From the NCBI RefSeq assembly GCF_900496995.4, contig NC_044006.1, forward strand, positions 21,660,214-21,724,213: a stretch of 64,000 nt of DNA. The letters are read 5' to 3'. The notes beneath the pieces were generated by a model. The model did no database searches, was not told the origin of the DNA, and saw nothing but the letters and a program-made list of their open reading frames with translations. The DNA comes from Aquila chrysaetos chrysaetos. Its lineage: Eukaryota; Chordata; Aves; Accipitriformes; Accipitridae. A program made the position numbers and the translations under genes. This document shows, one piece after another, positions 7,756 through 64,000 of this stretch (the stretch's first letter is position 1; every line of letters starts with the position of its first letter).

Positions 7756-8084
7756 GTACACCTGTGCACCAAAAGACGTGGTTTGTGCCAAGAAGCCGTG
7801 GTGGCCAGGCTGTCAGGCCCACAGGGCTGTTAAGCATCGGAATGTGTATAGCTCTACCAAGGCGAGTTTTCTAGAAGGGAAACGGTGGTCAAAAAACTCA
7901 GGCCAGCACTCGCGCCAAAGCGAAGACGAGGCACGCGTGGAATTCCGGGCTCTAGCTAGTAGGGAACAAACCCAAAGAGCATCCCGTGCCATTCAGAACA
8001 ATAGGGACAGTATTAGCGCAAAGGTCAAGATAAGGCCCGGAGCCCTCAAAACAAGAAAATCCCCTTTGCACGCCGTAACCCCGG
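7756..8084 (+). repeat. A+B sequence, left part (copy with relatives in CRTAP introns)
   Basis: Part A (7,756-7,861, 106 bp) aligns without gaps to 25,822-25,927 in CRTAP intron 4, with 14 mismatches by eye (about 87% identity). Part B (7,862-8,084, continuing after the provirus at 17,229 to about 17,250) aligns in the same orientation to 29,458-29,755, the first bases of CRTAP intron 6. The copy here is rich in CpG where the intronic relatives have TG or CA, so the intronic ones look more decayed. One + strand frame is free of stops from 7,703 to the provirus, but it has no ATG in that stretch. It may be a dispersed repeat or a local duplication. Confidence 0.6.
8081..8084. repeat. Left target-site duplication CCGG
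   Basis: Four bases CCGG flank the provirus here and again at 17,229-17,232. A 4-bp duplication is the usual size for gammaretroviral integration. Confidence 0.85.
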
Positions 8085-8690
8085 TGTTATAAACGCTCGT
8101 GACAAATTTGAGGAGCCAATTTGTATTGAATAAAAAAATCGAATTTATTAGCAAGCGATAAGAGAGCAAAACAGCGCTGGGCGGCCGGGGAGGCAACGCT
8201 CCGCCATAGGCCCGCAACTTTATGTTACCGTTACATTCCTTATACACATTTCTTGTACCCCTTTCTTGTAAGTCTCCGCCTTGTCCTGCTTCTTCTTTCT
8301 TCACTCGTGCAGGTCTGTTGCTATGCAGATTCGGTAATTTTCTCAAGGATGAGTATCCTTTGATGTAGAATGTCTTTTGACGTGGAGAAATATAGTCTTG
8401 GTAAATTGCAGCTCTTGTCCTTCCTCTCCTTATCTAGTAAGTTATAGCTGTTGTTCTTTTCTCTCCTTATCTAGTAAGTTATAGCTGTTGTTCTTTTCTC
8501 TCCTTATCTAGTAAGTTATAGCTGTTGTTCTTTCCCCCCCCTTATCTAGTAAGTTATAGCCATTGCCCTCTTCCCGTGACCTTTACGCATCACTTAAGCA
8601 AGCTTTGTTATTTACACCAGGCATATGTTAACTCTCAATGTGTCTCTTCCCCCTCTTGATTTCATGAACAAAGTTAACCCGTTCATTACA
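8085..8690 (-). mobile_element. 3' LTR of the provirus
   Basis: Begins TG and ends CA on the + strand, 606 bp. On the - strand it has a TATAAGG box (complement of 8,238-8,244) and an AATAAA poly(A) signal (complement of 8,144-8,149), which places U3 at the right, then R and U5. U3 contains four tandem copies of a ~37-bp unit (8,430 to about 8,575). It is 99.3% identical to the other LTR by substitution count. Confidence 0.93.
8430..8575 (-). repeat. U3 tandem repeat, 4 x ~37 bp (3' LTR)
   Basis: Copies start at 8,430, 8,467, 8,504 and 8,542. The first three are nearly identical and the fourth has diverged after a C-rich insertion. Direct repeats in U3 of gammaretroviruses usually act as the enhancer; that role is inferred here. 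Confidence 0.85.
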
Positions 8691-8704
8691 ATCCCCCCTT
8701 TTCT
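8691..8704 (-). other. Polypurine tract of the provirus
   Basis: Read on the - strand this is AG, four A, six G, AT, directly before the TGTAATG that starts the 3' LTR. It is the expected site where plus-strand DNA synthesis begins and confirms the - orientation. Confidence 0.85.
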
Positions 8705-9335
8705 ATTTATCCTGATTTTGTTCATTAAATCGATCTAATGCTTCTTTTGCTCGCCCAAGGATAGGAGTAATTCCTCCATCTCCAATCTGTGCATATTGCT
8801 TTCATAGCAGCATTAAATGTGCAGCTTCTAAGCGCTCTTTAACAACAGCGATCAACTTATTAAAAATGCATGGCCCAAAGTCAAAAATAAGATCAACAAA
8901 ATAAGAGGTCCTGCAATGGTTGACAACAGGGTGGTTAACCAGGGTGAATAATTAAACATGGATTCATACCAGTTCTGTTGTACTTCCCAGTCTTTTTTCC
9001 GTTTTTCTAACCCCTCCCGTAGCTTGGCCATTGTATCTCTAACTATCCCAGTATGGTCAACATATACACAACACTCCTCTCATAGGGCTGCACATAACCC
9101 CCCCTGCTGCATGAACATTAAGTCCAAGCCCCGTCTGTTTTGTAATACTACTTCTGATAAAGACCTAACAGACTGTTCTAGGGCTGTCATGGCCTCTTCT
9201 ATCCTAGTCAAATCCTCGTCGACCGCTACCCTTAGGGATTGAAATTTTTGATTTTGTTGTACGAGGGAGGTTATTCCTGTACCAGCTCCAGCAGCTCCGA
9301 TTCATGAGAGTTGCCACCGTGAGGGCTGTAAAGGG
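8705..9335 (-). pseudogene. env transmembrane subunit (TM), broken
   Basis: Downstream of the surface-subunit frame, the - strand still reads as a gamma-type TM across more than one frame: a heptad-like helix, an LQNRRG-type start of the immunosuppressive-domain region near 9,130, the CX6CC disulphide motif near 9,080-9,105, and a hydrophobic membrane anchor near 8,890-8,945. A frameshift near 9,296 separates the fusion-peptide region from the SU frame, and an in-frame stop falls inside the CX6CC motif. The protein is therefore not made in full. Gamma-type env would mediate fusion; this copy is a relic. Confidence 0.8.
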
Positions 9336-9977
9336 CTCACGTTTCTGTATGTGATGGGCCTGAGTAGTTTGATAGTCATAAAAACTTTCGGGATGGTAAA
9401 TAAGCCTAGGTATCACAGCTACTTGTATACAATATTCAGCTGTCCAATTAAAGACCTTTAGGGATATACAAGGTGTAACCCCAGTTTGGGAGCAAATCCA
9501 CTTAGTATTATCTGCAGGAATTAACCACTCAGCTGTTATTTCTCCTGATTTGCGAGTTGTGTTACACAGGTGTCGTTTGTCCTTTGGGACATTTCCGATA
9601 CACTTTCCTTTTCCCGATACTTGAGACATTGTTATCCCTTGTTTACGTCCGGATTCTTTATTCCACATGCACTGAGCTGGATTTGTTCCATTGGACTTTT
9701 TAAATCTACTGTCCACCCCAATAGCTTCATAAAAGGGCGGTCGAATGTCGTAACACAACCAACAATGCTCAGTTATATTAGGGTGGGTGGCATTCAGTAC
9801 CTGATAACTGGCTTGGAGCATATCCCACAATGGGTTGATTTTTGTTGATACGCCCGAGATATTGTTTTCAGCGATGTCTATGTTAGGGAGGATAGTAGCA
9901 GTCTGTACAATACTGTTACTATCATCTTCTTCTGCTACGACCGAATTTGGTCCTACACCAGAGGGTTCATTTGGCAC
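9204..9977 (-). pseudogene. env surface subunit (SU), C-terminal part
   Basis: A 257-codon frame covering most of SU. It holds CWLC (residues 72-75), the CXXC isomerase motif of gamma-type envelopes that links SU to TM, several N-glycosylation sequons (for example NAT, NIT, NRS) and a basic stretch QKRE (211-214) at the expected SU/TM cleavage position, which is weaker than a full furin site. The frame continues only a short way into the fusion-peptide region before a frameshift. The N-terminal SU and signal region lie in another frame upstream. Confidence 0.85.
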
Positions 9978-10228
9978 CAGCTCTTTCCTTATCGTAATTA
10001 TTCCTCCTGAATCTGTGCCTGGTTTCCAAAGTCTGACTCCCCATGTTCTCCCGGTTAACCAAGCAGGATCTTTCGGGTTGGTTACATTAATATAAATATA
10101 TGGGCAATTTCCACTCCATAGTCCTGTTTGGCTTCCATCCCAACCATGTGAGGCAGGTGTACATCCATGAGGCCCCCACCCTACAGATAGGAATTTATCT
10201 GGACCTCCCCCAGGAGTCCAATCAGAAG

Positions 10229-10870
10229 CTATAGTTTCGCAACCCCAATAAGCACAATAGTAAGAGTCGGGATGGTTGCAAAACCCTTTCCAGGGTTAGA
10301 ACTGGGACAAAAGTAAAAGCCTAAGTTATGTAGACATGGGTTCCTGGGTACGATTTGACATAAGGATTGATTAAAGCTTGGGGCCCCGGCAGCAATTACT
10401 TGCTGTAGTATCTTTTGATCCTCCCACCTATAGAGCGTCCATTTGTAGGGTTGGTGGGGGTTCCCTTTGCCTTGGGTTGTCCCTATTAGCATTAGTAACA
10501 GTCCTATCATCCAAGTGCTTAATCTCAAGTTTGAGAAAAGTGGTGTCCCTTTACCCTTGCGATAGGTATTCCGAGGGTGCTGATAATCATTTTGATTTTT
10601 GTCTTCATCCCTGGTGAGAGATGGGAGACTTTGGGGAAGCTCTGAGGACATTTTGTTTGGGAGTAATAAGTCAAGAGGCTCCGTGAGCCTTCTCTGGAGG
10701 TAGTTCATCAACCTTAATCCCCACAGCAGTACATCTCTGCCCTCTTCTCTGCCTACTCTGTTGCTTAGAGCAGCGAGGTGTATTTCTCGGCAGCAGTCGT
10801 ATTCTTCAGGGGAACCTCCTTTATATTTACTTTGCTTTGACTTATATGCGTCCCAGTTTGTATCCTTCAC
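10229..10870 (-). pseudogene. env N-terminal part with long leader
   Basis: A 213-codon frame. Residues 118-131 form a hydrophobic segment ending at TTQG that looks like the env signal sequence, followed by the start of mature SU (Trp/Tyr- and Cys-containing). About 117 hydrophilic residues lie ahead of the signal, far longer than the ~30-residue leader usual for gammaretroviral env. A second Met at residue 74 would give a shorter leader. It ends at a stop in the SU region, and the rest of SU is reached only through a frameshift in 9,978-10,228. Expression would need a spliced subgenomic RNA; no splice site was proven. Confidence 0.7.
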
Positions 10871-11088
10871 TTCCCCAGCTCCCCCCCCACTCTGACCACT
10901 GTTCGTCTGCGGGATACTTGCACTATTTCAGCTTTCGTTGGGCATAACTCATTTACATAAAGACAACACCTCTCAGGGTTTATGCCTTTAGCAAAAATAT
11001 CCCACCATTCTTTGGAGTTTGTTTGTTTGTTTTGGTTTTTTGTTTTTCTTTTTTTTTTTTTTATAATTTTCCGAGTTGATACTCCCAC
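10867..11088 (-). other. Unassigned frame between pol and env
   Basis: A 73-codon frame just upstream of the env leader frame and overlapping its start by a few bases. It begins with a Lys/Asn/Gln-rich stretch created by an A-rich tract (T-rich on the + strand, about 11,020-11,065) and continues with a Trp-, Cys- and Arg-containing segment. No known domain was recognised. It may be a former upstream part of env, an accessory frame, or chance. Confidence 0.3.
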
Positions 11089-11256
11089 ACGTAATGCTTA
11101 CTCAATTAATTCCTGTTTGTAATTATAACATTCGTGGCAAATGTCACTAGGGGGATACCCATAGGAGCAATGTGTCCACCACTTTTCTCTACAAAGTTTA
11201 CACCTGCAACATACAAAGATAACATATACAGTGAGGATTTTTTACAAAAGACAGTC

Positions 11257-12384
11257 TCACTCCTCCACTTTTCTTCGGAACTTGATTTTCAAGCTGTCAG
11301 GGTCTCTGGTCGCCTCCCAAAGAGAACTCTGAATTGGTCCTTTGATCCTGCTTGCATGAGTCCATCCTCGTTCTGCAGTTCGGACAGCAGTTTCTGTGGT
11401 AAGTAAAACAAGAAAGGGCCCCTCCCACCTAGGAGTGAGAGAGGATTCTTTCCAGGCTCTGATTAATACCATATCACCTGGCTTCACTGAATGTATGGAT
11501 ATATCTAAGGGTGGCCTCTGTACCACCATTCCCTTCTTTCGCAATCGCTCCCTCCTTTTCATTATCTGAACAATATAAGGGTTAATACTATCTTCATCTA
11601 AAGTAGGATAATCGGCTGGGCATTCCATATCATAGGGCATGCCATATAACATTTCAAATGGAGAAATTCCAGTATCTGCTCGGGGCTGAGTCCGAATATT
11701 TAATAAAGCAATTGGCAAACATTTTACCCAGGACATTTTGGTTTCTATCATTAACTTAGTTAGTTGCTTCTTTATTTCTCCATTCATTCGTTCTACTTTC
11801 CCGGAGCTTTGGGGATGCCACGGGGTATGGAACTCCCACTTAGTTCCAAAGGGGGCTAGAGCTTCTTTTACTACTTTGGAAACGAAATGTGGGCCTCTAT
11901 CTGAATCAATAGTTTCAATATTTCCATATCGCGGTATGATATGCTCTAAAAGTATTTTTACCACTGTATTGGCAGTTGCCCTAGCAGTAGGGAACGCCTC
12001 GACATAATGAGTGAGGTGGTCTACCAATACAAGTAAGTGTTTATATCGCCCTACTTTAGGGAGATCAGTAAAATCAATCTGTATTTTGGCGACTGGTCGG
12101 TGTGCCAATTCCCGTCCCCCTTGTACTTTTTCTCTAAGATGCTGCTTATTGATCCTCTGGTACGTTAGGCACCCTTGTACGATTCCCTTGGCTACATTAT
12201 AAACCCCAATACACATGTACTTTATTGCGAAATGATCAACCAGTGCTTGGACACCCCAATGAGTCTTTGAGTGCATACCTCTCATTATTTTCCATGTTAG
12301 TGCTTTTGGTAACACCTGTCTCCCATCGGGTAGTTCCCAATTACCCTCCTTTTCCACTACTCCCATTTCCTTCAATTTATCCAT
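11257..12384 (-). pseudogene. Integrase region of pol
   Basis: A 375-codon frame covering nearly the whole integrase. The N-terminal zinc-binding domain shows H38 and H42, and C72, but the fourth ligand is Tyr75 where Cys is expected. The catalytic core has the D104, D162, E198 triad with exactly 35 residues between the last two, and the C-terminal domain follows. In the family, integrase joins viral DNA ends to host DNA. The frame is open but detached from reverse transcriptase by upstream frameshifts, so it would not be made from a normal Gag-Pol precursor. The missing zinc ligand should damage the N-terminal domain. Confidence 0.9.
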
Positions 12385-12407
12385 TTCTGGTTTACTAAAC
12401 TGTGGGC

Positions 12408-13039
12408 TTAGGATTCTTGCCGGCGTTTCACCTGCCAGGGGGCGGTGGTCACAGTAAGTAGTGCTGCCGCCTCGGCCTCTTGATCAGCAAGATTATTCCC
12501 TCGAATTTCAGGGGTTGTTCCTCTTTGGTGTCCCTTAACATGTACCACAGCTATTCGCTTGGGCCCTCTTATTGCTTGTAGAATTTTTACAATCAGTTCC
12601 TCATGAATCAAACCCTTTCCTTGAGAATTAATAAGTCCTCGTTCCTCCCAAATTTTCCCAAAGTATGTACCACTCCATACGCGTATTTTGAATCCGTGTA
12701 CACGGTTCCTTCTTTATCCTTTAAAAGTTCCAGTGCCCTAAGTACTGCGTATAACTCACATGCCTGCGCCGACCAACTAGGACTGAGGGGTCCGGATTCC
12801 TTTACTTCTAGGCTCCCCCCGTCCACAATTGCATATCCTGACTTCCTTTTCCCTGCTATTACTCGAGATGACCCATCAGCGAATAACTTTTCTCCCTCTC
12901 CCAATTCTACTTCTTCCAGATCTAGCCTAATTTTTGTTTGTTCTTCAATGGTCTGAAGGCAATTATGTGTTAAGTCTTCTTCAGGACCCCCATACAAAAA
13001 TTGCGCCGGATTTTGCAAGTTCGTTGTTCCGATCTCCAA
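12408..13039 (-). pseudogene. RNase H region of pol
   Basis: Two adjoining frames (12,608-13,039 and 12,408-12,611) hold an RNase H domain: FADGSSR with the first Asp, a Glu in the ELYAVLRALE helix, TDSKYA with the second Asp, then in the other frame HVKGHQ and NNLADQEAE with the His and last Asp. The four acidic residues typical of the active site are thus all present, but a frameshift near 12,610 splits them. The stretch 13,040-13,266, between connection domain and RNase H, also contains breaks. Confidence 0.88.
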
Positions 13040-13266
13040 TTTAGGGGAATGGATTAGGATCCCCTCATATTTTAAAAGCCTAGCATCGGTGATCCGTTTT
13101 TCAGCTTTTGTTGGAGAACCCCTCGAATATTATGAGGGGAGAACCCTTAATTCACTTCCAAACGTTACCTTATTCGCTTCTTCCACTATCAGAGCTACAG
13201 CAACAACTGCCTGTAAACAGGTGGGCCACCCTCTACTGACGGGGTCTAATAATTTGGAAATGTACC

Positions 13267-14366
13267 CTACAGGTTTCTTTTTCCTGCCCACTCCTGGGTC
13301 AAAACCCCGTATGCTGTCCCCTCCTCAGTGGCCACAAATAAATAAAAGGGTCTCTTCATATCAGGCAGACTCAAGACAGGGGCGTTAACTAGATCGGCCT
13401 TTAGACCCTCTAATCTTTCTTCATCCTCTTGAGTCCACTTAAGCAATCTATCCATAGTTAACTTTTGATACAAAAATCGCACTTTCGCACTAAAGTTCTC
13501 AATCCACTGCCTGCAATACCCAAATAGCCCCAACAATTGTCTAATCTGTCGTTTACTTTCGGGGCTTTCAGTGATAAAATCCCATTTCCTCGTTCAGGGT
13601 CTAACCTCTTAGTCCCCTTGCTTATCCAGTGTCCTAAATATTTTACCTCCTCTTCCACAAACTGTAGTTTTGACCGTGATATCTTGAGGCCTTGAAGGCT
13701 CAAAAAATTTAACAACCCTATGCTTTCTTTTCTGACTGTCTCTTGATCCTCTCCTGCCAACAATAAGTCATCCACATACTGTATTAGCACGACCCCATCT
13801 TGCAACCGGTATTCCCGTAGAATCCGTTCTAGGGCTTGTCCAAATAAGTTTGGGGATTCCGTGAACCCTTGGGGAAGTACAGTCCACCTTAACTGCTGTT
13901 TTCTATGAGTGTCTGGGTCTTCCCACTCAAAGGCAAAATAATCTCTACATTCCTCCTTAAGAGGGCATGACCAGAATGCATCCTTAAGATCTATTACACT
14001 ATACCATTGGTTTTCAGGCCCCAGTTGACTCAACAGGGTGTGTGGGTTTGCCACTACCGGGAACCGGCTGACAGTCCGTTTATTGATTTCTCTTAGGTCA
14101 TGCACCAGCCGATAGCTACCATCAGATTTTTTTACTGGTAAAATCGGGGTATTAAAAGGGGACATGCAGGGTTCGAGTACCCCCTTTCCCAATAGTCTTT
14201 CAATCTCAGGTTTTAGTCCCCTTCTCCCTTCATTAGATAAGGGATATTGTTTAACTCTCACTGGAATCTCTGGGTTCTTAATAACCACTTCAAACGGTTC
14301 AATATCCAGTTTTCCAACTGTTTCGGGAGTATACCACACTTCGGGGTTAATTTGCTTCTCGTCCAC
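13267..14366 (-). pseudogene. Reverse transcriptase region of pol
   Basis: A 302-codon frame (13,458-14,366) encodes fingers and palm: motif A VIDLKDAF (residues 124-131), motif B LPQGF (164-168) and the catalytic YVDD (197-200). The connection domain continues in another frame (13,267-13,536), so a frameshift lies between about 13,540 and 13,600. The motif spellings are those of gammaretroviral and related polymerases. In the family the enzyme copies viral RNA to DNA. The catalytic motifs of this copy look intact while the reading frame as a whole is broken. Confidence 0.93.
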
Positions 14367-14583
14367 CTCTGTAAGGGGACAAAGCTTGATTTTTCAACTC
14401 TTCCTTTTCCACATCCACCAGAATCCCCCATTTCTACAAATTAAATCCCTAACCTAATAAGTTATATTCCGCTCAGGTACCAACAGCAGCGTTCCAATTC
14501 CATATCTGCAACTTGAATTCCATTCCACCGCCACATCTTTTATAACGGGGACACTAAAAGGTTCCCCTTTTGCTCCAATTACA

Positions 14584-14778
14584 TTACTTTATCCTCAATA
14601 TTTTACATCCCGGAGGTAATGATCGTACCGTAGACCTTTCGGCCCCGTTATCTACAAGAAAGATCACCTCCTGACGCTGAGGACCCACTTTTAAAGTTAT
14701 CAAGGGCTCCTTCTTACCGGGGGTCCTCAGCACATAGAGCCCCCTGACCCCGCTAATCCTCCCGGAACGCTTTTTCAT
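14584..14778 (-). pseudogene. Retroviral aspartic protease, active-site variant
   Basis: A 64-codon frame with a protease core: a beta strand leading into LVDNGAERS, where the family has D-T/S-G. Thr to Asn in the catalytic triplet would be expected to harm activity, although the Asp and Gly remain. The frame stops soon after at residue 64, and protease sequence appears to continue in another frame towards 14,400. The protease normally cuts Gag and Gag-Pol. Confidence 0.8.
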
Positions 14779-14784
14779 CCTGAA

Positions 14785-15583
14785 TTCTTTTTCTACATTC
14801 TCTCTTCATGTGTCCTTTTTCCCCGAATAAAACATTCCACGGCTTTATCTCCTCTACCCCCCGATTCTTTCTTTATCCCCCCCACCAGGCCGACCGGGTC
14901 TCCTTATCACACCTTTCTGTCCCTCTCTTACCCGCTGCAACCAGCAGCCTAGTCTGTCGCTTTTCCGTTTCCTTTCCTCTTCTCGCCTCACATACACCTT
15001 CTGAGCGTTCTCTAAGTAATTCATCCAACCCCCGCTCCTGCCAGTCCTCATTTTCTCCAACTTCTTCCTAATATCTCCCCACAACTTGGCCACGAACTGG
15101 GTTTTCAGCAACGCTTGGTCCTACAGGAGTGGGCAGGGTTCACTCCAGAATATAGCTGGAAACTTTTCCTTAACCTTTCAAGCCATTCCGTTGGGGTCTC
15201 ATCTTTCTTTTGCTGTTCACGAAGGCTTTATTAATATTCTGTCCTCGGGGAACAGATTCCCGTATCCCCTGAATTATAATTGTGCTCAAGTCTGACATAT
15301 TATTCCTATGAGCCGGATCCTGATTATTCCAGTTTGGCCGATTTAAGGGCCATTTTTGATCCGCCGCCGGACACAGCCTGATGTTGCTGGTCCCACACTC
15401 TCATCCCAGCCCCTCTAATCATGTCTCTTCCTCTACGGGTAAATAATATGCCCAGGATAGACTTGTAATTCATCCCACGTGTACAAATTCGGTCCCAAGA
15501 ATTGATCCAACCTTTCGGCTACCCCCAGGGGGATCATCTAACAGATTCCCCATTTCCTTCTTAAATCCCTTACATCCCCTGTA
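14785..15583 (-). pseudogene. gag capsid and nucleocapsid, decayed
   Basis: The - strand reads as gammaretroviral capsid in several frames separated by stops: a conserved stretch near 15,470-15,540 and a charged C-terminal helix (frame 14,854-15,111 with KLWGDIRKKLEKM). It ends in a zinc-knuckle remnant (GEKGHMKREC, about 14,790-14,830) in which the first two Cys of the CCHC motif are no longer in frame or are replaced. No continuous gag product is possible. Confidence 0.75.
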
Positions 15584-16225
15584 TTAAGGAGGACTGCACA
15601 TACCCCGGTTCCCGGTCCCCCTGTCCATCCCCCACAGCACCAACATTTCCCGAAGAGAAACAATCTTTTCCTTTCCTCGCATTATTCTATTACGTGCAGA
15701 CCTTCTGGGAGGGGGTGCCGGGGTCGGGGAATCAGGTTCCGAATCTGACCCCCCCTGGGCCTGGGCTATTTCCTGGCCTTGGGGTGGGTCCTGAGGTGGA
15801 GGGGCTTGAGGGGCATAGGGAGGGGGCCAAAGGGGGTCCTCATCATTTTTTCGAGGTTTATCTGATCTGTTTTCCCTTAAGGTAAAGAGGAATGACGGCT
15901 CCCAAGATTGGGGAATCCATAAGGCAGCATATTCACTCTCCTCTTGGCTGGCTGGTGGTCTTTTATTGTTTACCCATATATTTAATTGCTGACACACCCA
16001 ATCCTCAGAGGACCCGAACACAACATGAGGATTGTTGAGAGGTTTCCCACCCCAAATCTCAATACAATAAGTGATCATTTTTTCCTTAGACTTATCCTTT
16101 CTCTTTGGTGAACTGTCCCAAGATCTTATCATCAGGCCTAAGGGACTATCAGGGGGTATGTCTGGTAACTTATTTCCTTTCCCCATCCCCATGGGTCCAG
16201 AGGACTTGCTTTTCCTCTGTCCCAT
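15584..16225 (-). pseudogene. gag matrix and p12-like region
   Basis: The frame from the MGQ start at 16,225 gives about 213 residues; the open frame extends 12 codons further upstream, but MGQ fits the N-myristoylation signal of gammaretroviral Gag. Matrix occupies the first ~110 residues, followed by a Pro-rich, p12-like segment with a PPPY late-budding motif at about 15,815-15,826. An Arg-rich stretch and a stop follow near where capsid should begin. Gag normally assembles the particle at the membrane; this copy is cut off before capsid. Confidence 0.85.
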
Positions 16226-16596
16226 CTTCCGAGGTGCCTTTATCCACACACACACACTCACTGCCCCTCGGTCGTGACTCGCTCGCTCGCGGGCTACGAG
16301 AACTGCACTACTGGAGGGTCCGCACTCGCGTGATCTCAGAGAGACCTCTCACACACTCGCACCTCGGGATAACCACCCCAACCAAACGGCTCACGCTTTA
16401 TATACTCACCCGCTCCTGGGTCTTTGCTTGGTCTTCGTGCACAAAATTTAAGGGGTCCTGCAGGTTCTTTTGCTCAGTTATCGTAATTTAAAGGGGTTCG
16501 CGGGTCCAGGGGTGTGGTGACGACACCTCCTCAAGACGGGGCTATCCAAGGATAGGGCGCCTCCCCGCTTGCGAGGGTCCGCACCAAAGAACCTGG
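16226..16596 (-). other. Provirus 5' leader
   Basis: About 370 bp between the primer-binding site and the gag start, the region that in gammaretroviruses holds the splice donor and packaging signal. It includes a CA-rich run (about 16,244-16,258). No specific packaging structure was assigned. Confidence 0.6.
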
Positions 16597-16614
16597 ATCC
16601 GAGTCACGGCACCA
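16597..16614 (-). other. Primer-binding site for tRNA-His
   Basis: The + strand reads as the last 18 nt of vertebrate tRNA-His (ATCCGAGTCACGGCACCA), so the - strand viral genome carries its complement starting TGGTGCC. It lies four bases inside the 5' LTR. This identifies the element as tRNA-His primed, as in the HERV-H group, rather than the Pro-primed type common in gammaretroviruses. Confidence 0.93.
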
Positions 16615-16618
16615 AATT

Positions 16619-17228
16619 TGTTATAAACGCTCGTGACAAATTTGAGGAGCCAATTTGTATTGAATAAAAAAATCGAATTTATTAGCAAGTGATAAGAGAG
16701 CAAAACAGCGCTGGGCAGCCGGGGAGGCAACGCTCCGCCATAGGCCCGCAACTTTATGTTACCGTTACATTCCTTATACACATTTCTTGTACCCCTTTCT
16801 TGTAAGTCTCCGCCTTGTCCTGCTTCTTCTTTCTTCACTCGTGCAGGTCTGTTGCTATGCAGATTCGGTAATTTTCTCAAGGATGAGTATCCTTTGATGT
16901 AGAATGTCTTTTGACGTGGAGAAATATAGTCTTGGTAAATTGCAGCTCTTGTCCTTCCTCTCCTTATCTAGTAAGTTATAGCTGTTGTTCTTTTCTCTCC
17001 TTATCTAGTAAGTTATAGCTGTTGTTCTTTTCTCTCCTTATCTAGTAAGTTATAGCTGTTGTTCTTTCCCCCCCCTCCTCATCTAGTAAGTTATAGCCAT
17101 TGCCCTCTTCCCGAGACCTTTACGCATCACTTAAGCAAGCTTTGTTATTTACACCAGGCATATGTTAACTCTCAATGTGTCTCTTCCCCCTCCTTGATTT
17201 CATGAACAAAGTTAACCCGTTCATTACA
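16619..17228 (-). mobile_element. 5' LTR of the provirus
   Basis: 610 bp, TG to CA, nearly identical to 8,085-8,690. On the - strand: U3 with the ~37-bp repeats, TATAAGG (complement of 16,772-16,778), AATAAA (complement of 16,678-16,683), then a short U5 and the tRNA-His site. Transcription from it would run away from CRTAP. Its U3 end abuts the CRTAP CpG island, so its enhancer repeats are less than 1.1 kb from the CRTAP start codon. Confidence 0.93.
16964..17112 (-). repeat. U3 tandem repeat, 4 x ~37 bp (5' LTR)
   Basis: Copies begin at 16,964, 17,001, 17,038 and about 17,079. They match the array in the other LTR copy for copy, with a 3-bp difference in the C-rich spacer before the last unit. 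Confidence 0.85.
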
Positions 17229-17232
17229 CCGG
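17229..17232. repeat. Right target-site duplication CCGG
   Basis: Matches the CCGG at 8,081-8,084. Homology of the interrupted B sequence to CRTAP intron 6 resumes here, which independently confirms the provirus boundary. Confidence 0.85.
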
Positions 17233-17780: not shown

Positions 17781-17819
17781 CCCCCCGCCCCGCCCCGCCC
17801 CGCCCCGCCCCCGCCCCGC
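17781..17819 (+). promoter_or_regulatory. GC-box array (Sp/KLF sites)
   Basis: Five closely spaced CCCCGCC units. Sp1-family factors bind such sites; their position just upstream of the CRTAP start fits a core-promoter role. Confidence 0.7.
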
Positions 17820-17999: not shown

Positions 18000-18449
18000 A
18001 TGTGGCTGGCGCTGGCGGCGCTGCTGGCGGCGGCGGGAGCGCAGTACGAGCGCTACAGCTTCCGCAGCTTCCCGCGGGACGAGCTCATGCCGCTCGAGTC
18101 CGCCTACCGCTACGGCCTGGACCAGTACAGCACCGAAAACTGGCCCGAGAGTGTCAACTACCTGGAGGTCAGCATGCGGCTCTACCGCCTGCTGCGCGAC
18201 AGCGAGGCCTTCTGCCACCGCAACTGCAGCTCCGCCGGCCACCCCCCCGCAGCCGCCGCCGCCGTCCCCGCCGCCGGGGGAGCGCTGGCCGAGCTGCGCC
18301 TCCTGGCCGGGGTGCTGCGGCGGGCCCAGTGCCTGCGGCGCTGCAAGCAGGGACTGCCCGCCTTCCGCCAGGCCCAGCCCGGCCGCGACCTGCTCGAGGA
18401 TTTCCAGCGCCGCGAGCCCTACAAGTACCTGCAGTTCGCCTACTTCAAG
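18000..18449 (+). CDS. CRTAP coding exon 1
   Basis: 150 codons, ending in phase 0 at AAG|GTGAGG. The ATG is the first in this frame followed by a hydrophobic Leu/Ala leader, with predicted cleavage before QYERYSF, a stretch that starts the mature protein in other vertebrates. Contains CxxxC motifs 72-76 and 111-115 and an Ala/Pro-rich insert (about residues 80-96) that looks like low-complexity expansion within the CpG island. Confidence 0.96.
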
Positions 18450-24400: not shown

Positions 24401-27400
24401 ACCTCTCATCCTATCCCATTGCAGCAAGCTTTTGTAGGCTGGGTAAGCTTGTGAACTTAAACGTTTCTGGCTGACAGTTGTTCTGCAGCAAGTGATGTAT
24501 TCGTGTCTGCCTTCTCTTTTAGAACGTCCAAACTGCAGGCACAAAATGCAGCCATCTCTGGAGGTTTATTTTGCAATCACCTGCTGTATTTCTCTGTGAC
24601 AAAGTTGTACTCAGCAGCATGTGGACCTTATTCATGCAATAATTTAATGAAATTACAAAAGCTCTCAAAATTTAAAAAAAAACCAAACCAGCACTATTAA
24701 GTTCACAGATAAAAATAATGTGATACTCCCTAACACTATATAAAACCTACGACCACAGACTGCCTGTAGGTGTCAGTGAAACCTAACTGCTTAGTTCTCT
24801 GGAATTGCAGCTTTGATGCATTTAAGTCCAGACCGCATTGATTTTTACAGAAAGGCTGGAGACCAGCACTTGGTATGTACTTCAGATGGAGTTGTAGATG
24901 CTCAGTGCTTCCAAGCAGCAAGATGCAGATGCACAGGACCCAGGAGAGCATTATAAGGCCAAACTTTAATGGGTAGCTAACGGGAGGGCTTATAACAATT
25001 CACTGTATGCTGTCAATATCCTGTGGTTTTTTTTTTCTTCCATTGTAGATCATTATATTGAAGTCCTTGCATGCAAAGTGCAGTGTGAGAGTAATCTGAC
25101 ACCCATTATAGGAGGCTTTGTTGTTGAGAAATTTGTGGCCACCATGTACCATTACTTGCAGTTTGCATATTATAAATGTAAGTAGTAATTTAATGTGCTT
25201 CAGTAGCATTGGGATCATGTGGGACAGTTTCCATTCATAACCTTCTCCCTCTAGTTATAATGCTTTAGAATGTAAATAGTGGCCTCCAGAATCTGCATTT
25301 TAACCTGTTCTGGGGCAGAACGTGTGAGCTGCCTGGTGTCTTTCTCTCTGTATAACTGTAGTTAACAGGCATGGAAGGTAAACGTTACATATAGAGCCCG
25401 TGCTCATAAAATTATCCATGACAAAATAAATTGCTGAACATAAGTCCTATAAGGGATGGATTTTGTCCAGGGCAGACCCCACTGGTTTAAGTTATGCATG
25501 CTTGTGACTGGCCTCCACTTGGGTGTTGGGAAAATGAGGCAGTTACAGCCTCAGTGTGAACTGATCCATTGCTGCCCTTCATTCTTTTTATGATACCTGC
25601 TGCCAGCACAAGTTGCTTACACCCTTCAGAGTGTCATATAAATGATAAATGTTTATATAAATGATAAATGTTCATATAAATGATCAATGTTCATCGTATG
25701 TATTTCGGATGTTTAAATGATACACCAATTCTTCTGCCTTTCTGAAGTAACTCGTGTTAGGGTAAACACTGTCAGCCACTTCCTATCCATTGAAACACAT
25801 GCAATGACACAGATCCATTTCGTACATCTGTGCACCAGAAAACATGGTGTGTGCCAAGAAGCCATGGTGGTCAGGCTGTCAGGCCCACATGGTTGTTAGG
25901 GATCTGAATGTGCATAGCTCTAACAAGAAATTTTTTCTTAGACTTCTAACTCATTCAGTTAGAGAGAAGAAAGCTTGTGACTTTAAGGCAACACATTTAA
26001 TATAACACCACTTATTCTATTGAATAAATACTCAATTTTCAATTTATTATTCAGAATTTCTTCCACAGATAAACCTACAGAGTATTTCATACCATTTGCT
26101 TTTTCCTAGTGGATTCCTATAATCCTGTTAGAATGGGGTCCATGGGGCTAAATGGGTTTTGAAGAAAGAGGGGACTGCTTAACAGAAGTTGTAGTGTTCT
26201 GGTGCTCAGTGATTACATATTTGATGGGTAAATCATTCAGTGAATTTTGTGGTTTCTTGAGGAGCTGCTTGCACTGTAAAGAACAGATGTAGCCCTTATA
26301 GCTACTCCTGCAGGCTCCAACATAAAGGGAAGACACATCCAGCCATGTAGTATCAAGCCATTAATGACTTTTGCTTATGTTACTTGACTACACGTTTTAC
26401 ACATTGACTCTTCCCTCTTTGTCAATTCTAGTACAAAGAAATGGGTTTTTTTTAATTTGTTTGTTTGGTTTTTTAATAAGTGCCCCAATGGGGATCACCA
26501 AGCTGTGGGCTGATACCTCGCTGATACTGGGATACCTGGGAGGGATGTTTGGCTAGAATTTTCATAGAAAACCATCAGAGGTGAGTCCCCATTTTTTAAT
26601 CATGGCCTTACCTGTTTCAGAACACAAAAATAGCATATTCTTTCTGGGAAGCAATTTTTTTCTAGCAATGTAGCTGGTGGAGAGGTAGAAAAGTTCTGTT
26701 TCTATCTGAGTTTTTCAGAGCTTAGATAATAGTGGGAATTTGTTCCTTTGCCTTATCTGGATTTTTTTTTTTTGTTTGTGTTTATTAATTAGTGAATGAC
26801 ATGAAGAATGCAGCTTCTTGTGCTGCTAGTTACCTTCTGTTTGACCAGAAAGATGAAGTAATGAAACAGAACATGGTCTATTACCAGTACCACAAAGACA
26901 AATGGGGACTTAAAGAAGAGGATTTTCAGCCCAGATCGGTAGGTGAATTACTTAAAATGCCTTCTAGACACATTCAGGTATTTCCCTGAAACCCGGTGGG
27001 TCAGAGGCTGGGAAAATGGGAGTTATCTATTGGTTCTGGAGTTAAACACATACTGTTTTATTAAAACCGTCTAGAAAGTTGTACACAGAGATGTACAGGT
27101 ACTCTGTAATGTTGATAGTGAATGTCACTATATATGCTACAGTAGAATATAATATGATATGATGACAAGTAAATTCATGCTGGTACTTGTCTGCCACTTA
27201 TGCATATTTATATCTTTATCTACCTCAATAAATAAAGCAGCTGGCCCCTGAAATCTCTTCATGAAAGGATCACCCCAGTAACATTTGAGCTTTTGTCAAT
27301 CACTTATTATTTGCCAACATGTAGTTGCCTACCTGCTTGTTATTTCAGGTTCTGTGGGCATTGGAATGTGTCCGGATATGATAACCCCAGCTAAACTCAC

Positions 27401-48407: not shown

Positions 48408-64000
<15,593 letters not shown>

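What the first reader, a model, noticed from the sequence alone, without database searches (positions are those of the whole stretch)
8085..17228. Recent tRNA-His-primed provirus in the CRTAP promoter flank
The LTRs differ by only four substitutions and two short indels over about 606 bp, the CCGG duplication is intact and the primer site matches tRNA-His over 18 nt. The 5' LTR, with four U3 repeats, lies about 770 bp from the CRTAP start, divergent to it and at the CpG-island edge. A young insertion here could be polymorphic in the species and could alter CRTAP expression. That effect is inference.
Basis: partly seen in the sequence, partly recalled or inferred. Interest (0 to 1): 0.75.

Follow-up and report, generated by a model that had tools for sequence, protein, structure and literature searches.

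The report
Young broken retrovirus beside CRTAP gene
A chromosome, most likely of a bird, carries a fairly young but gene-broken retrovirus of the mouse-leukaemia-virus kind just upstream of the collagen-chaperone gene CRTAP; it is a well-formed, mostly ordinary insertion, and any effect on CRTAP is untested.

Summary
A minus-strand provirus lies at 17228-8085: LTRs of 610 and 606 bp with 4 substitutions and 2 indels, a CCGG duplication, an 18/18 tRNA-His primer site, and the CRTAP start codon 772 bp away, divergent. It is a class I, gammaretrovirus-like ERV: MLV-type RT and integrase, and Env with CWLC and CX6CC. Its nearest named integrase relatives come from hawk, roadrunner, flycatcher and owl. 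'Recent' needs a caveat: the LTR clock gives 1.3-1.7 My (0.35-4.5), but relatives show at least 15 frame changes and 2-3 in-frame stops in gag, pol and env. At an assumed ordinary indel rate that is several-fold too many; at the LTR pair's own indel ratio it is not. LTR homogenisation, an already defective parent, or assembly error remain open. The site lies in the only CpG island my scan found in the window's host DNA, and integrase keeps a W(x7)SLKIK tail like the one that binds BET proteins in MLV, so the location needs no CRTAP function. Polymorphism and CRTAP effect could not be tested; all 15 requests to the host assembly did not complete. New member of a known kind.

The parts
16619..17228 (-). 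5' LTR (610 bp), TG...CA, nearest to CRTAP and divergent from it
8085..8690 (-). 3' LTR (606 bp)
17229..17232 (.). target site duplication CCGG (CRTAP side)
8081..8084 (.). target site duplication CCGG (distal side)
16597..16614 (-). primer binding site, 18/18 to a published tRNA-His PBS; 4 nt lie between LTR end and PBS
8693..8702 (-). polypurine tract
   Evidence: by eye
16944..17097 (.). 37-bp tandem repeat, 4.1 copies, in U3 of the 5' LTR; three WGATAR motifs
8410..8560 (.). 37-bp tandem repeat, 4.1 copies, in U3 of the 3' LTR; four WGATAR motifs
15069..16348 (-). gag region, broken: one 254-codon open piece 16348-15587, then p30 region with several frame changes
13461..14393 (-). reverse transcriptase open piece (RVT_1; YVDD), nearest solved relatives are MLV-type RTs
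11260..13455 (-). rest of pol: RT connection, RNase H, integrase; 5 frame changes; integrase piece 12483-11260 open
11272..11319 (-). 16 residues of the integrase tail, W(x7)SLKIK and on, aligned with the tail that binds BET proteins in MLV
8696..10927 (-). env, gamma type (TLV_coat; CWLC in SU, CX6CC in TM), 3 frame changes and 2-3 in-frame stops; the limit 10927 is that of an open piece and relatives match only from about 10549
18000..18449 (+). CRTAP exon 1 (start codon 18000-18002; exon end approximate); further exon matches at about 21.9, 22.7, 25.0, 26.8 and 29.4 kb

Best explanation
This is a class I, gammaretrovirus-like endogenous provirus of a kind found in birds. Shown from sequence: complete LTR-internal-LTR anatomy with a 4-bp duplication, an MLV-type pol and a gamma-type env. 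Inferred: an infectious or complemented virus reached the germ line; its integrase, tethered by BET proteins through the C-terminal tail, inserted it into the CRTAP promoter/CpG island a few hundred thousand to a few million years ago. Since then, or partly before, gag, pol and env have been broken by frame changes and stops. Its LTRs keep promoter-like and tandem enhancer-like sequence (TATA-like box, polyadenylation signal, 37-bp repeats), so they could act on CRTAP, but nothing here shows that they do. The location is adequately explained by integration preference.
For: Anatomy. Gamma pol: RVT_1 E 1.5e-31, rve 1.2e-15, MLVIN_C 5.4e-10. The ten best PDB rows of the RT piece score 225-235.5 bits (one is named MMLV RT; that the others are MLV-type is recalled), and the next row scores 97.9 (60 of 209 rows shown). 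Env: TLV_coat E 8.7e-37, CWLC and CX6CC. Relatives: integrase 95% over 73% (P0008), 92% over 50% Accipiter gentilis; env 97% over 62% (P0122), 75% over 91% Buteo japonicus. Tail: aligned to integrase p46, PDB 2m9u; published gammaretroviral motif W(X7)PLK(I/L)R (PMC6974304 passage); of 53 relatives reaching the C-terminal domain, 40 have W within two residues of the aligned column and 10 the strict motif. Site: one CpG island found, 2050 of 54852 host bases, spanning the insertion point. Youth: CpG o/e 0.42-0.72 in the provirus against 0.21-0.32 in three large host bins.
Against: The lesion load is higher than the LTR clock predicts at ordinary assumed indel rates. One insertion in an island covering 3.7% of the host DNA, noticed after the fact, is weak evidence for targeting. 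The tail departs from the published motif at two positions (S for P, K for R), the 50-residue match to 2m9u has only E 0.11, and BET binding is untested. The CpG argument is softened by the 1.2 kb of host DNA left of the insertion, which is also CpG-rich (o/e 0.43-0.96). Protease and nucleocapsid were not clearly recognised (RVP E 0.1, 13.3 bits against a cut-off of 20.7; no CCHC or protease motif by the patterns). Gag p30 in the window's own piece is below the cut-off (18.4 against 27.4 bits).
Confidence: 0.85

Rival explanations
1. The insertion is older than its LTRs say: the two LTRs were homogenised by gene conversion, so the LTR clock was partly reset, while the coding region shows more of its true age.
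For: At least 15 frame changes and 2-3 in-frame stops, against 3.4 lesions expected from 4 LTR substitutions if indels are 0.12 per substitution (P 0.0011 for 17 lesions; rates assumed).
Against: With indels at 0.3-0.5 per substitution, and the LTR pair itself shows 2 to 4, the excess fades (P 0.07-0.30). The integrase branch of the window copy is no longer than that of the open relative P0008 (0.025 against 0.028). CpG o/e is still fairly high.
Confidence: 0.25
2. The copy was already defective when it integrated (copied with proteins of an intact relative), so many lesions predate the insertion.
For: Young LTRs with broken genes; relatives whose predicted proteins run open over the broken stretches exist (P0008, 631 aa; P0122, 432 aa).
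Against: Those relatives do not share the lesions, though a protein database shows open frames by its nature. No sibling copy could be examined.
Confidence: 0.15
3. Part of the frame changes are assembly errors confined to a multi-copy provirus.
For: Some frame changes come as neighbouring compensating pairs, with 86-96% amino-acid identity on both sides in pol.
Against: No clear enrichment at homopolymers: runs of 5 or more within 9 bases at 4 of 14 junctions against a random mean of 2.16 (fraction 0.152; 0.110-0.216 over the four paddings tried), and none of 6 or more. Host coding sequence nearby looks clean: six CRTAP matches without a frame change, one of them with a stop at its start that I read as intron, and a 463-codon open frame at 49799-48408.
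Confidence: 0.15
4. The 5' LTR changes CRTAP expression, by its enhancer-like repeats or by displacing an upstream element.
For: 772 bp from the start codon, in the CpG island, with tandem repeats holding GATA-like motifs. Precedent: an EAV-HP insertion in the 5' flank of SLCO1B3 causes blue eggshell in chickens (PMC3554524, title and abstract start in the listing).
Against: No expression data; the LTR transcribes away from CRTAP; about one WGATAR motif per LTR is expected by chance (own estimate); the location is explained by integration bias.
Confidence: 0.12

Closest known systems
Gammaretrovirus-like (class I) ERVs of birds, with MLV as the type virus
   Same: 4-bp duplication, MLV-type RT, integrase with MLVIN_C and a tail like the published motif, gamma-type Env with CWLC and CX6CC, tandem repeats in U3 (the last as an MLV trait is recalled)
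   Different: tRNA-His primer (MLV uses tRNA-Pro, recalled); genes broken; 4 nt between LTR end and PBS, where MLV processing removes a TT dinucleotide (passage)
HERV-H (primate ERV, tRNA-His)
   Same: identical 18-nt PBS
   Different: no sequence comparison beyond the PBS was made; membership not claimed
Accipiter 'NYNRIN-like' and Geococcyx, Mionectes, Glaucidium 'TF29/TF211' proteins
   Same: 77-92% integrase identity over 50-74% of the query, in one supported set of seven rows with the window copy, P0008 and Catharus
   Different: only protein fragments were seen; their LTRs and sites were not
EAV-HP at chicken SLCO1B3
   Same: provirus in the 5' flank of a bird gene
   Different: a different retrovirus group (recalled); there a phenotype is reported, here none is known

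Membership tests
Gammaretrovirus-like class I ERV | TG...CA LTRs with 4-bp target duplication | tested here: met
Gammaretrovirus-like class I ERV | RT closest to MLV-type RT | tested here: met
   ten best rows 225-235.5 bits, next row 97.9; one row named MMLV, the rest MLV-type by recall
Gammaretrovirus-like class I ERV | integrase with MLV-type C-terminal domain | tested here: met
   MLVIN_C 39.3 bits, cut-off 29.2
Gammaretrovirus-like class I ERV | integrase tail W(X7)PLK(I/L)R | tested here: inconclusive
   W(x7)SLKIK: spacing and core kept, two positions differ; alignment to 2m9u weak as a whole, E 0.11
Gammaretrovirus-like class I ERV | gamma-type Env (CWLC in SU, CX6CC in TM) | tested here: met
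   TLV_coat 127.5 bits; motifs, the CX6CC stretch holding an in-frame stop
Gammaretrovirus-like class I ERV | gag p30 and one CCHC zinc finger | tested here: inconclusive
   p30 below cut-off in the window piece, though relatives P0192 and P0194 carry PF02093; no CCHC pattern found
Gammaretrovirus-like class I ERV | gag and pro-pol in one frame with stop read-through | tested here: inconclusive
   too many frame changes to judge
HERV-H family | tRNA-His PBS | tested here: met
HERV-H family | HERV-H pol/LTR sequence relationship | not tested
   no HERV-H sequence was compared
Polymorphic insertion | empty allele in some individuals | not testable with these tools
   The genome search unanswered in all 15 attempts

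The most novel reading that the evidence does not exclude
The provirus belongs to an avian, non-REV gammaretrovirus lineage that has moved between bird orders in fairly recent times and may still have infectious members: relatives open over the broken stretches and 95-97% alike in part of pol and env exist in sequence collections, and the nearest named hosts are a hawk, a roadrunner, a flycatcher and an owl. Its BET-type integrase tail would steer it to promoters and make it a recurrent source of promoter-side insertions in birds.
Probability: 0.25. Interest if true: 0.6.

Novelty: new member of a known kind. Interest (0 to 1): 0.35.

Why it matters
It is a clean example of a promoter-side gammaretroviral insertion, next to a gene for a collagen chaperone. 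If polymorphic, it would give a natural test of whether such LTRs alter a nearby promoter. The mismatch between LTR age and coding decay is a caution against dating by LTRs alone. [quoted passage not shown] The same survey also says that beta- and gammaretrovirus-related ERVs are the most abundant kinds in avian genomes, which makes this provirus ordinary as a kind (PMC4272516, passages seen).

Tried and rejected
Rejected: alpharetrovirus or betaretrovirus membership (4-bp duplication, MLV-type RT; the 6-bp duplication of those groups is recalled). Not found: an upstream divergent gene.

Led nowhere: relatives in IMG/VR by integrase (none) and by RT (8 pattern matches, none a relative); the gag piece against the PDB (no match); Rfam over the window at gathering scores (no match); homopolymer enrichment at frame changes (none clear). 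Paper searches for CRTAP with retroviral insertion listed 20 of 106 and 10 of 1,304 papers, each with zero occurrences of CRTAP; the unlisted ones were not seen. A search for this lineage in print listed 10 of 22, none holding Accipiter or tRNA-His. Searches were seen as listings only; two searches gave passages not used.

Rows dropped or limits: the tree used 48 chosen relatives plus the window piece, of 120 listed and 250 found. Inside its seven-row set some forks are weak (window with P0008 88/69; Geococcyx with Mionectes 83/52). Lesion tracing used 11 relatives; some of these are gene models, which may skip over damage. 14 of at least 15 junctions went into the homopolymer test, the vaguest gag one being left out. 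Gag segments have 47-100% identity and several are only 10-17 residues long, so gag counts are less sure than pol (86-96%). The third possible env stop lies next to the 3' LTR and may be the natural end. The lesion test assumes 7000 coding bases, 0.045 stops per substitution and given indel rates. An apparent stop near 13150 was resolved as a pair of frame changes. In 'W' was counted within two residues of the aligned column.
Full report
What was checked. The window holds a complete provirus on the minus strand between 17228 and 8085. Its LTRs are 610 and 606 bp and differ by 4 substitutions over 606 aligned columns, one 1-nt gap and one 3-nt gap. CCGG stands directly outside both TG...CA ends. 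The primer binding site at 16614-16597 equals, 18 of 18, the HERV-H tRNA-His PBS primer printed in PMC3253121 (passages seen). A polypurine tract adjoins the 3' LTR. Each U3 holds 4.1 copies of a 37-bp unit. CRTAP begins with an ATG at 18000 on the plus strand: the first exon matches 'Cartilage-associated protein' of PDB 8k0e (E 2.9e-53), and later exon matches follow between 21.9 and 29.5 kb (with a recalled human sequence as query). The LTR is 772 bp from the ATG and transcribes away from it. The transcription start of CRTAP is not mapped here.

What it is. The internal region has the order gag, pol, env of a simple retrovirus. Of the 8 open pieces scanned, 5 gave Pfam matches: TLV_coat (env), integrase core with MLVIN_C, RNase H, the RNase H-like domain of RT, and RVT_1; the other 3 gave none. 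The ten best PDB rows of the RT piece score 225-235.5 bits and the next 97.9 (60 of 209 rows shown; one of the ten is named MMLV RT, the rest are MLV-type by recall). Env has CWLC and CX6CC. This is a class I, gammaretrovirus-like ERV. Protease, nucleocapsid and p30 are not clearly recognised in the broken copy.

Relatives. The integrase piece found 250 proteins, of which 120 were listed. The closest by identity are 95% over 73% (P0008, unnamed read contig), 92% over 50% (Accipiter gentilis), 84% (Geococcyx) and 81% (Mionectes); full-length matches reach 75%. The env piece found 64 proteins, with 97% over 62% (P0122, unnamed) and 75% over 91% (Buteo japonicus). The gag piece found 13. A tree of 49 integrase rows places the window copy with P0008, Accipiter, Geococcyx and Mionectes (98/95), then Glaucidium and Catharus (98/96). 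Hawk, cuckoo, suboscine, owl and thrush do not form a group in bird phylogeny (recalled), so the lineage has probably moved between host orders; this is inference from protein fragments. The host of the window itself was not identified; that it is a bird is inferred from the named relatives, nearly all of them birds.

How old. At 0.19-0.26% per My (rates in PMC5260121, passages seen) the LTR difference gives 1.74 or 1.27 My, with Poisson ranges of 0.47-4.45 and 0.35-3.25 My. CpG o/e is 0.42-0.72 in the provirus against 0.21-0.32 in three large host bins, in line with a young insertion, though the 1.2 kb of host DNA left of the site is also CpG-rich (0.43-0.96). Against this, tracing the frames with 11 relatives shows at least 15 frame changes (gag 7, pol 5, env 3) and 2-3 in-frame stops, one inside the CX6CC stretch of TM. 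If indels occur at 0.12 per substitution, 4 LTR substitutions predict 3.4 lesions and 17 are unlikely (P 0.0011); if at 0.5, 10.9 are predicted and 17 are unremarkable (P 0.30) (all rates assumed). The LTR pair itself shows 2 indels to 4 substitutions. So whether there is an excess depends on the indel rate. Frame changes show no clear link to homopolymers. Host coding sequence nearby looks clean, which speaks against general assembly noise but not against noise confined to a multi-copy element. Relatives' predicted proteins run open across these stretches, as a protein database would favour.

Why here. Gammaretroviruses integrate near transcription starts and CpG islands, in MLV through binding of the integrase tail to BET proteins (PMC9861059 and PMC6974304, passages seen). 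With the two host flanks joined, one CpG island was found (500-bp windows, GC at least 0.55, o/e at least 0.65), 2050 of 54852 bases, spanning the insertion point from -404 to +1646. A random insertion would fall there with a probability of about 0.04, but the test was made after the fact. The integrase of the window ends in W(x7)SLKIK, against the published W(X7)PLK(I/L)R. It aligns with the tail in PDB 2m9u, integrase p46 (MLV by recall), although that 50-residue match as a whole has only E 0.11. Of 53 relatives that reach the C-terminal domain, 40 have a tryptophan within two residues of the aligned column and 10 the strict motif; in the other 13 it is missing, cut off or out of register. 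The location therefore needs no CRTAP function to explain it.

Effect on CRTAP. Possible but not shown. The U3 repeats carry GATA-like motifs (three in the 5' LTR, four in the 3' LTR), and about one such motif per LTR is expected by chance (own estimate). Bird precedents for ERV insertions that change expression exist (SLCO1B3 blue eggshell, PMC3554524; CYP19A1 henny feathering, PMC6712707; titles and abstract starts seen in the listings).

Verdict. The thing is a new member of a known kind. Its more interesting sides are the host-incongruent avian gammaretrovirus lineage and the possible mismatch between LTR age and coding decay. All 15 requests to the host assembly did not complete, so copy number, solo LTRs and the empty site remain unknown.

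Noticed in passing
window 16618-16615 and 8692-8691: Four nucleotides lie between the 5' LTR end and the primer site, but about two between the polypurine tract and the 3' LTR; if the linear DNA ended at the PBS, integrase would have removed 4 nt at one end and 2 at the other, against the TT dinucleotide described for MLV (passage).
   Followed up: no
window 11272-11319: Sixteen residues of the integrase tail are letter-identical to those of P0001, although the whole integrase is only 75% identical; strong constraint or recombination.
   Followed up: partly
window 48408-59749, minus strand: A 463-codon open frame with a membrane-like segment (48408-49799) and a Sushi domain (E 7.8e-07, in 59219-59749) suggest SUSD5, in the order recalled for vertebrates after CRTAP (gene name recalled).
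   Followed up: partly
window 17783-17819: A CCCCG tandem run in the CRTAP CpG island.
   Followed up: no
window 25634-25694: A 19-bp tandem repeat, 3.2 copies, between two CRTAP exon matches.
   Followed up: no
P0100 and P0116 (ray and shark): Integrase of a ray and a shark matches parts of the window piece at 52-56% identity, as well as many bird fragments do, and falls in the outer group of the tree.
   Followed up: no
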